Assembly (NCBI GenBank): GCA_949130485.1
Contig: OX422183.1
Location: 3,422,136-3,486,135 of the forward strand
Direction of reading: 5' to 3'
Source of the DNA: Agelas oroides
Lineage: Eukaryota > Porifera > Demospongiae > Agelasida > Agelasidae
DNA length: 64,000 nt
Below, in pieces: positions 31,439 to 34,400 of this stretch; within the stretch, counting starts at the first letter, position 1, and every line of letters starts with the position of its first letter. The notes beneath the pieces were generated by a model, which did not search any database, had not been told where the DNA came from, and was given only the letters and a program-made list of their open reading frames with translations. A program made the translations under genes and the position numbers.

Positions 31439-34400
31439 TCAAGTTGTGCAGCCTAGACTCGTACACTCGTTGGCGGCACGGACAACAGCTGGCTGGACCA
31501 AAGAGAGACAGTGGGCCCTCCAGATTTGGCAGCTGTCCTCATGGAATAACATGCACTGACATGTTGTAGAACTACAAAAATGCATGTGGAGCTCAATTTA
31601 TACATACACATAGTTTTGTGGGCTAAATTTTCACAGTTCATACTAGACCACAAAAAAACACAAAAATCACCCCTTTCCCCAGTGGAAAAATATCTGTTAT
31701 ACGGTATGTAGCCCTCATAATAGGCTAGCTCATTGCGTGAGGGAAGTCTGCTGAAGAGCACATAGATCTGGTAGCATATTACAGCCATTTTTTTCAATTC
31801 GACAGAGAAATAGCGAGAAATTTGTCCATATTTATCTTAGAATGTGGCCAACAATAGTTGTTCTTTATGTATTGAAATCCTACTGCGAGCAGACTTCTGA
31901 AGATACAACTGGATGAACGTGTGCAAATTTCGTAATGCAATCATCAATCGCCAAATTTTAAATTCTGCCAACATTCATTTACAGTCATTTGGAGCCCATT
32001 TCACCAAATATAGTTCCCACCAAATCTTCTCATCTTATACAGGCTGGCCAAGTACCAACACACAAGGGCATTGCAAGAGATTCAATGATGATGCATGCGC
32101 TGGTAGAATTCTTATTGATAACCGTTTCCTGTTACATGCTTGAAAAGGAGCTTATACTAGGAGTGCACATGTGCCATCCTGCATGTGCACAGTGGACTGG
32201 GCATCCCCCACTCTCCAGTTGACAACAATACTTTTGTACTATTGCTGAATTTTATTTCTCACTCTCTCAGCAAAAACATCAATACTCTCCAGTTGACAAT
32301 ACTACTCTTCTGCTTCCTTGTCAACACCAAGAAATAGAAAATGGGGGAAGTTTAGGAAACGAGGACAATGGAGTGCCTTCTTCGCTTTCTCTTCGTCTGA
32401 GTTGGCAGCCATCAGCTTCATTCAGCATTTGACTCCTCCATACCCAGCACTCCCAAGTATCCAAGCCGGCAACTTCTACCCTGCACCATCCTCTTCACCA
32501 CCACCGCCAAACAACAACATGCACTCTCCTCCCTAATCAGTTAGCTCCACTGCCAGCACAGCTGATGAGGCCTGGGTATTGGCGGAAACGTATCCTGTGC
32601 AGTGGGTGACTTTGAATAACATCTAGGCCTATACCTTTTTCAGGGAGATGTCATTTGTAGATTGTTCATGCACAATGCTAAGCATGATGCATGATGTGAC
32701 TGATATTCCTTGTAATTTATAAAACACCCTGGAAAAAATGCCATGCATGTTCACGGCATGTTACTAGCATTTTTAGGCATGTCTACCTGGTACTTGCATG
32801 AAACATGCATGTTTCTGTCCCACCATGCATGTCACATTCACAACATGTAAGAAACTTGCATAGTATACATGCTTGTTTCCTGCAAGTTTGTGTAGCGTCC
32901 AACATGCATGTTCTGACCATGCATGTTTCTGGATCCCTCACATGTGTGCATGTTGCGATGTGACACATGCCTTTCGTTATCAGCTAAGTTTCATTATTGC
33001 TTCCTTTGGGACATGGTCACCACTAGCCTAGGGTATATCTAGTTCAAGCTGGCACTGCGTAGGTGGGTGGGACTGCGTACTGTTTTCCCTGACCTTGGCT
33101 CCGCCCAGTACTTAGCGCGCGTACAGTAAGCGCTGCGTTGCGGTACTCGTATACATGCCTGCATGTACTGCCGATGTGCTAGCTCCAGGCTACATGTAGC
33201 TAGGTCTTTGTAAGTGTGGTCACAGCCTAGGCATAACGCATAGACAGCGACGTTCGTTGGAACGCACGAAGCCCAAACCACAAAATCAATTACGGCTGTT
33301 TGCGTTGACCTTCCTATTCAGCCTGTAAAGAAGTTTACCACATAATTATATTCATGTGCACAGCTTTTTGGTTCACATTTTGCAAGGTCAACGCAAACCG
33401 CTGTAGGACACATGCATGTTCATGTAACATTCATGTAACATGCATGCAGGATGCATGCATGTAGTCGCATGTTAGCATGCATGAGTCTCTACCGACTTTT
33501 GAAAAAGGCCAGCCACCTGACTGCATTCTGTGCATGATATGGCAGTCCCCATCTCCCGGTCACCCCAGCGCAGCTGATGAGGCCTGGTATTGGCCGAAAC
33601 GCGTCCTGCGCAGTGGGTGACTTTGCATAACATCTAGGACTGTTTTTATAAGGGAGATGTGGTTCGTTGATTGTTCATGAAAAGTGCATGTAACATGCAA
33701 ACTTCTGACGCCTAAAGTTGCTGGTAAAGTGCATGTAACATGCCTTTAACATGCATGGCATTTTTTCCAGGGCAGTCCTAACATAACTGGCAAACATGTA
33801 CATACATATGCACATCACAAAAATGGACCCCAATTATGAGTGTTAGACTAATTGATATGTCTTGTTTGGTAACATTCACAAAATCAATAGCGACACTGGT
33901 ACACAGCGATATCGACGAATCCCCAGGCTTCTTGTTAACATTACAATGTATGCCAAGACATGTTTGGTGCTATGAGGCATGCAGATAAGTGAAAAGTCAG
34001 CAGTCACTGGAAATCAAAACACAATTGCGCGGAATCAAACCCAGTCACTGGAAATCAAAACACAATTGCGCGGAATCAAACCCAGTCACTGGGATTCAAA
34101 TACCGTAGTCTCAAAAAAGAGTGCCCACTCATGAAAGAGCACCCACCCCCTACTTTTGGCCCAATTTCCTGTATAGGGTCAAAGTTTACTCAAATGAGCG
34201 CCCATCCTGGAGCAAGTTTGAAACTTTGTGTAATACTCCACCGAAGGTTACTACAAGGTAGACAGACGTAGCTAAGGCGGTGCATACCGTGAGCTACACC
34301 ATGCTCGTGGTGACATGGTGCCGTTCAGAGTGTTGTGTGCCATCAGGACCCGACTTTGAAGCCGCTAGTGGTTCTGGTGTACATTATTGTTCGTCCAATT

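What the first reader, a model, noticed from the sequence alone, without database searches (positions are those of the whole stretch)
33559..33621. Intact type I hammerhead ribozyme in a small mobile element
All invariant hammerhead bases are present in order: stem I, CTGATGA, stem II, GAAA, short stem III, UC, then the complementary stem I strand. Stem I has 6 + 7 perfect pairs around a CA/AGT internal loop that could make the usual tertiary contact with loop II. The element (33505-33676) is about 172 bp, non-coding and dispersed. Hammerheads with tiny palindromic stem III are known from animal retrozymes and Penelope-like elements, and this family fits that group.
Basis: partly seen in the sequence, partly recalled or inferred. 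Interest (0 to 1): 0.88.

Follow-up and report, generated by a model that had tools for sequence, protein, structure and literature searches.

The report
Hammerhead ribozyme in truncated Penelope-like retrotransposon
The window holds a real self-cleaving-RNA motif, but it sits on the cut-off tail of a full-sized jumping gene of the Penelope-like class, a known setting for such motifs whose purpose there is still unsolved.

Summary
The hammerhead at 33559-33621 is real: all core bases, stem I of 6+7 pairs, stem II, and a palindromic zero-loop stem III ACGCGU. Its core pattern occurs 230 times in the 259-Mb source genome, 0 times in the reversed control. It is not in a 172-bp element. The copy (about 33483-33679) is the 3' end of a 5'-truncated retrotransposon. 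Full units carry one 992-aa ORF with an N-terminal GIY-YIG nuclease and a downstream reverse-transcriptase match. Four head-to-tail partial dimers occur, three with period 3,558 bp, one 3,553. This is the anatomy of a Penelope-like element (PLE); the nuclease-first order fits the permuted Naiad/Chlamys group (recalled). PLE hammerheads with minimal stem III are known. New here: copies end about 72 nt past the cut site; 5' ends of near-full-length single copies are not at the cut site (0 of 5); four dimers read through it; units within a dimer are closer than most pairs of copies, though three of the four also match single copies. That suggests a circular or homogeneous multimeric RNA template without proving it. 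Self-cleavage was not tested. Verdict: a member of a known kind, with a testable lead.

The parts
33483..33679 (+). 5'-truncated copy of the Penelope-like element (unit positions 3436 to about 3631, counted from the ribozyme cut site)
   Evidence: 97.97% match of L001 1479-1675 to the C19 unit, converted to window coordinates; junctions
33559..33621 (+). Type I hammerhead motif
   Evidence: read directly; alignment; model R1 95.8 bits (R1 was built from copies that include this sequence)
33568..33573 (+). stem I inner 5' strand GCGCAG, pairs with 33606-33611
33559..33565 (+). stem I outer 5' strand GTCACCC, pairs with 33615-33621 across a CA/AGT internal loop
33574..33580 (+). catalytic box CTGATGA
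33581..33595 (+). stem II GGCC/GGCC with 7-base loop
33596..33599 (+). catalytic box GAAA
33599..33604 (+). palindromic zero-loop stem III ACGCGT
33605..33606 (+). predicted cut site, after C17 at 33605
   Evidence: position in the hammerhead consensus; cleavage not tested
33672..33677 (+). TGTTCA, the fixed 3' end of insertions (inferred start of reverse transcription)
   Evidence: 55 of 60 junction rows read TGTTCA followed by T
45970..46033 (+). older related copy whose hammerhead core is still intact
4124..4186 (+). older related copy, GAAA box broken
45508..45570 (+). older related copy, GAAA box broken
32547..32610 (+). older related copy, stem II and stem III damaged
19471..19537 (-). 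older related copy, core interrupted by an insertion
59806..59868 (-). older related copy, stem II damaged

Best explanation
The motif is the hammerhead of a Penelope-like retrotransposon whose single ORF has the GIY-YIG endonuclease first and the reverse transcriptase after it; the window copy is a 5'-truncated, non-coding insertion of that element. Shown by sequence: the ribozyme lies in the non-coding joint between one unit's ORF and the next unit's ORF; insertions have a fixed 3' end about 72 nt past the cut site and variable 5' ends, as expected if reverse transcription starts at one internal RNA site and runs upstream until it stops; four insertions run past the upstream ribozyme into a second unit. 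Inferred: two ribozyme copies, on one multimeric RNA or on two RNAs, pair through their palindromic ACGCGU stem III and cut as a double hammerhead, releasing unit-length RNA, which may then be ligated to a circle. Because copying starts just downstream of the ribozyme, a linear RNA cut at both ends could give only a ~72-nt copy, so the productive template must be uncut at that ribozyme: multimer, read-through RNA or ligated circle.
For: 230 core-pattern matches against 0 in the control. 992-aa ORF with GIY-YIG at aa 128-217 (24.8 bits, over the curated cut-off 22.6) and RVT_1 at aa 632-842. Six of the listed RT matches have a 1,012-codon open frame. Head-to-tail units of 3,558 bp at C19, C2 and C11 and 3,553 at C1. 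Fixed 3' ends. Same layout in the anole PLE PAc: cut site 26 nt and RT start 111-118 nt into the ORF, i.e. 85-92 nt apart (PMC11167929 main text). Stem I and II pairs predicted at 0.93-1.0 and 0.71-0.72; double hammerhead -64.7 kcal/mol against -57.0 for two monomers without stem III.
Against: RVT_1 scores under Pfam's cut-off (24.4 against 29.6) and no solved structure is related by sequence (four ribosomal-protein matches at E 0.62-0.89), so the RT class rests on the anatomy, not on a tree. Rfam score under gathering. Alternative folds beat the ribozyme fold slightly, alone (-30.9 against -28.5) and as two strands (-67.6 against -64.7). No 5' end at the cut site. In PAc, ribozyme mutants inserted normally in vitro, the ribozyme needed protein to cut, and no RNA ends were found at the cut site (PMC11167929).
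Confidence: 0.82

Rival explanations
1. The ribozyme plays no part in transposition of this family; linear, unprocessed read-through RNA is the template and dimers come from transcripts of tandem loci.
For: PAc ribozyme mutants insert normally in vitro and no RNA ends map to the cut site (PMC11167929). Five single 5' ends fall at unit positions 19-152, inside the 5' leader, and none of the 13 regions shows one between 152 and about 301, as ordinary RNA 5' ends might. Four dimers carry an uncut upstream ribozyme.
Against: Dimer units are closer to each other than most pairs of copies, which needs homogeneous source arrays; the ribozyme core stays intact in the young copies.
Confidence: 0.4
2. 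Unit-length circular RNA made by the ribozyme is the usual template (see the section on the most novel reading).
For: Dimer units nearly identical; the C19 pair shares one base found in none of 34 other copies; geometry of cut site and copy start; one copy starts at position 72, where other copies end.
Against: C2, C11 and C1 dimer units are as close to some single copies (2 of 13, 2 of 30, 5 of 34); 5' ends cluster in the leader; the PAc data above.
Confidence: 0.2
3. Dimers arise when a new copy inserts beside an old one, or by gene conversion between neighbours.
For: PAc protein cuts its own ORF-pLTR joint in vitro (PMC11167929).
Against: Joints are exact and unit identity is unusual for independent copies: as close are 0 of 78, 1 of 55, 4 of 300 and 29 of 378 pairs of other copies. 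The complete downstream unit cannot be a DNA duplicate of the truncated upstream one. Conversion is not excluded.
Confidence: 0.1
4. A small non-autonomous retrozyme-like element.
For: The 172-bp part is what the older window copies share.
Against: Unit is 3,558 bp and coding; truncation points vary; no short spacing in 100 of 230 listed places.
Confidence: 0.04

Closest known systems
Minimal type I hammerheads of Penelope-like elements (Cervera & de la Pena 2014; Lunse et al. 2017; seen only as citations and passages in PMC7761336)
   Same: Type I, hardly any stem III, in the repeated joint of a PLE, expected to cut as dimers.
   Different: Nothing decisive found; the 2014 and 2017 papers are not held, so a sequence-level comparison was not possible.
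PAc, a Poseidon PLE of the green anole (Frangieh et al. 2024, PMC11167929, main text read)
   Same: GIY-YIG plus RT in one ORF, tandem units, hammerhead near the start of copying, 3' ends about 70-90 nt past the cut site.
   Different: PAc has the endonuclease at the C-terminus and its ribozyme overlaps the ORF start; here the endonuclease is N-terminal and the first ATG lies about 208 nt past the cut site.
Naiad/Chlamys PLEs with permuted domains (Craig et al. 2021; title and names seen; domain order recalled)
   Same: Endonuclease before RT.
   Different: Paper not held; whether its members carry this ribozyme could not be checked.
Metazoan retrozymes (Cervera & de la Pena 2020, PMC7229834: abstract and two sections read)
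   Same: Type I hammerhead, dispersed copies, possible RNA circles.
   Different: Retrozymes are short non-coding tandem units; here the unit is 3.56 kb and coding.

Membership tests
Hammerhead ribozyme, type I | Invariant core boxes and stems I and II in order | tested here: met
Hammerhead ribozyme, type I | Rfam RF00163 gathering score | tested here: not met
   24.2 bits against 34; not listed in the whole-window scan
Hammerhead ribozyme, type I | Self-cleavage | not testable with these tools
   needs an in vitro assay
Penelope-like element | GIY-YIG endonuclease and RT in one ORF | tested here: met
   GIY-YIG over cut-off; RVT_1 E 2.8e-5 but under Pfam's cut-off
Penelope-like element | Tandem or partial-tandem units with repeated joint (pLTR) | tested here: met
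   four dimers
Penelope-like element | Telomerase-related RT in a tree | not tested
   no PLE reference set; structure job never accepted
Naiad/Chlamys PLE | Endonuclease N-terminal to RT (recalled) | tested here: met
   aa 128-217 before aa 632-842
Naiad/Chlamys PLE | RT clade membership | not tested
   no reference sequences held
Metazoan retrozyme | Short (150-450 bp) non-coding tandem unit | tested here: not met
   unit 3,558 bp with ORF; no short spacing in 100 of 230 listed places

The most novel reading that the evidence does not exclude
This PLE transposes from a unit-length circular RNA made by its own dimeric hammerhead: copying starts ~72 nt past the ligated cut site and goes once round (one copy begins at unit position 72, where other copies end) or more than once, leaving dimers with near-identical units. 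That would give the PLE ribozyme its missing role and explain why no RNA ends were seen at the cut site in another PLE.
Probability: 0.2. Interest if true: 0.78.

Novelty: new member of a known kind. Interest (0 to 1): 0.4.

Why it matters
The role of the minimal hammerhead in PLEs is called 'still a mystery' in PMC7761336 (passages read), and the in vitro study read here found it dispensable for insertion (PMC11167929). This genome holds 230 matches to the core pattern, intact ORFs and four dimers of one family, so linear-multimer and circular-template models can be told apart with sequence and simple RNA tests.

Tried and rejected
Rejected: a 172-bp independent element (truncation points vary); a retrozyme (no short spacing in the 100 listed places); cut-site-defined 5' ends (0 of 5 single ends; of the 13 regions fetched 1 ran on into an upstream unit and 7 held no match, i.e. 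those copies start further in).

Weak: pairing changes on ten distinct copies chosen by me (4 pairs changed on both sides, reached by 43 of 500 shuffles; cells paired 88.5% against 86.7%, 3 of 500; many changes look like CpG decay). A conservation contrast on four divergent copies was dropped because three of them came in as best hits of the 172-bp query. The later one used 19 regions beside older RT matches: 6 counted, L095/L099/L107 left out as near-identical, L100 left out because its 3' part is unrelated sequence, 9 with no alignable 3' end; with those put back the contrast weakens and ribozyme plus tail vary more than the ORF end. In the 19 regions, model R1 found a hammerhead in 9; the distant RT relatives showed none in the 0.9 kb fetched. 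First tandem comparison looked stronger than it is; against all held copies three of four dimers also match single copies. L091 (C1 gap) was fetched but not examined.

Not done: a genome-wide count of hammerhead cores with any stem III, an RT structure (never accepted), inspection of the sixth tail-to-leader junction at C3:9435143.

Full report
Observation. 33559-33621 reads as a complete type I hammerhead: every core base in place, stem I of 6+7 Watson-Crick pairs around CA/AGT, stem II GGCC/GGCC with a 7-base loop, and stem III the palindrome ACGCGU with no loop bases. The core pattern occurs once in the window and in none of 100 shuffles. Rfam's Hammerhead_1 aligns over its full length with no broken pair but scores 24.2 bits, under the gathering score of 34, and is not in the whole-window list.

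Genome. The window lies in contig C1 of a 259-Mb, 141-contig genome. The core with ACGCGTC matches 112+118 = 230 times, the reversed control 0 times (100 of the 230 places were listed). Its cox1 on contig C141 has in-frame TGA codons and is split by about 1.2 kb; from general knowledge that fits sponges and some cnidarians, a hint only. A third cox1 match, on C107, has no TGA and may be bacterial.

What carries it. An RT fragment gives 153 matches in the genome, six of the listed ones in open frames of 1,012 codons. Two neighbouring matches on C19 are units of a head-to-tail tandem with a period of 3,558 bp. The frame between its two hammerheads encodes 992 aa from its first ATG, with GIY-YIG at aa 128-217, over Pfam's cut-off, and RVT_1 at aa 632-842, E 2.8e-5 but under the cut-off. 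No chain in the PDB is related by sequence. One ORF with GIY-YIG and RT, tandem units and a hammerhead at the joint is the anatomy described for Penelope-like elements (PMC11167929 main text). Endonuclease before RT fits the permuted Naiad/Chlamys group; that rule is recalled, and only the title of its paper and the names were seen. No RT tree was made.

The window copy. It matches unit positions 3436-3631 at 98%, window 33483-33679: a 5'-truncated insertion into a TGCATG-rich site. Among 60 junction rows (duplicates removed by sequence; one row is a tandem-internal joint), 55 read TGTTCA followed by T. The 3' end is thus fixed about 72 nt after the cut site, while 5' ends vary.

Ribozyme fold. 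Stem I pairs have predicted probability 0.93-1.0 and stem II 0.71-0.72; stem III cannot close in one molecule. A double hammerhead sharing the ACGCGU duplex scores -64.7 against -57.0 for two monomers without it, but an alternative pairing is slightly better both alone (-30.9 against -28.5) and as two strands (-67.6). These numbers hold no tertiary contacts. Dimer cleavage of PLE hammerheads is in print by title (Lunse et al. 2017, cited in PMC7761336).

Does cutting leave a mark? Of 13 regions fetched, 5 show a single 5' end, at unit positions 19, 72, 109, 137 and 152, none at 1; one runs on into an upstream unit; 7 hold no match because the copy starts further in. RNA cut at the upstream ribozyme is therefore not the usual template, and a monomer cut at both ends could not be one, since copying starts ~72 nt inside it. 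Uncut multimer, read-through RNA or a ligated circle remain. The clustering of the five ends in the leader would also fit ordinary linear RNA 5' ends.

Dimers. Six places in the genome run from tail into leader: four are dimers, one is the copy starting at position 19, one was not inspected. Within dimers the units differ at 0 of 2,064 (C19), 1 of 2,280 (C2), 0 of 1,130 (C11) and 1 of 414 (C1) compared bases; pairs of other copies as close number 0 of 78, 1 of 55, 4 of 300 and 29 of 378. The upstream unit is 5'-truncated in all four (positions 1567, 1351, 2501, 3212), while the downstream unit is complete in C19, C2 and C11 and seen at 1-1500 and from 2022 in C1, so it is not a DNA duplicate of the upstream one. 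One template with identical units is the simple reading: a circle read more than once, or a multimer from a homogeneous array. Only the C19 units are closer to each other than to every other copy (one private shared base); units of the other three also match 2 of 13, 2 of 30 and 5 of 34 copies as well. The circle is suggested, not shown.

Constraint. In six older copies found through the RT, ribozyme plus tail differ at 27 of 808 bases, the neighbouring 3'UTR at 122 of 1,507 (p 4.7e-6) and the ORF end at 50 of 1,200 (p 0.41). With L100, whose 3' part is unrelated sequence, or with all ten alignable copies, the UTR contrast falls to p 0.007 and 0.003, and ribozyme plus tail are then more variable than the ORF end (p 0.009 and 0.008).

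Other copies in the window. A model built from ten distinct copies, six of them from this window, finds seven hammerheads; besides the one reported, only 45970-46033 passes a scan for an intact core and stems. The copies at 4124 and 45508, and at 19471 and 59806, lie in matching blocks of a ~41-kb duplication, so each pair is one old insertion; 45970 also aligns to 4124, so the right-hand block carries two copies where the left has one.

Judgement. The interest lies in what the ribozyme does there; this genome's young copies and dimers make that testable.

Noticed in passing
window 1-24358 and 40988-64000: The window holds much of a ~41-kb tandem segmental duplication: blocks of 85-97% identity at offsets of about 39.6-42.5 kb, covering 18,483 bases of the left copy.
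   Followed up: partly
window 22138-24417 (-), 28502-30772 (-), 61790-62233 (-): Long intronless TRIM-type frames; the first two match RING, B-box, filamin and NHL repeats, the third is a partial relative seen in the ORF list.
   Followed up: partly
window 45409-46085 against 4048-4240: The right-hand duplicate has two hammerhead copies about 0.46 kb apart where the left has one; the 22-base stem I 5' region is repeated two to three times in these copies.
   Followed up: no
G000 C107:16176-16808: A cox1 match without TGA codons on a separate contig, possibly a bacterial associate or contaminant.
   Followed up: no
PLE copies, unit positions about 3421-3438 (L001, L005, L016, L027, L036, L038): Several copies at different places are truncated within a few bases of each other, as if copying often stops there.
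   Followed up: no
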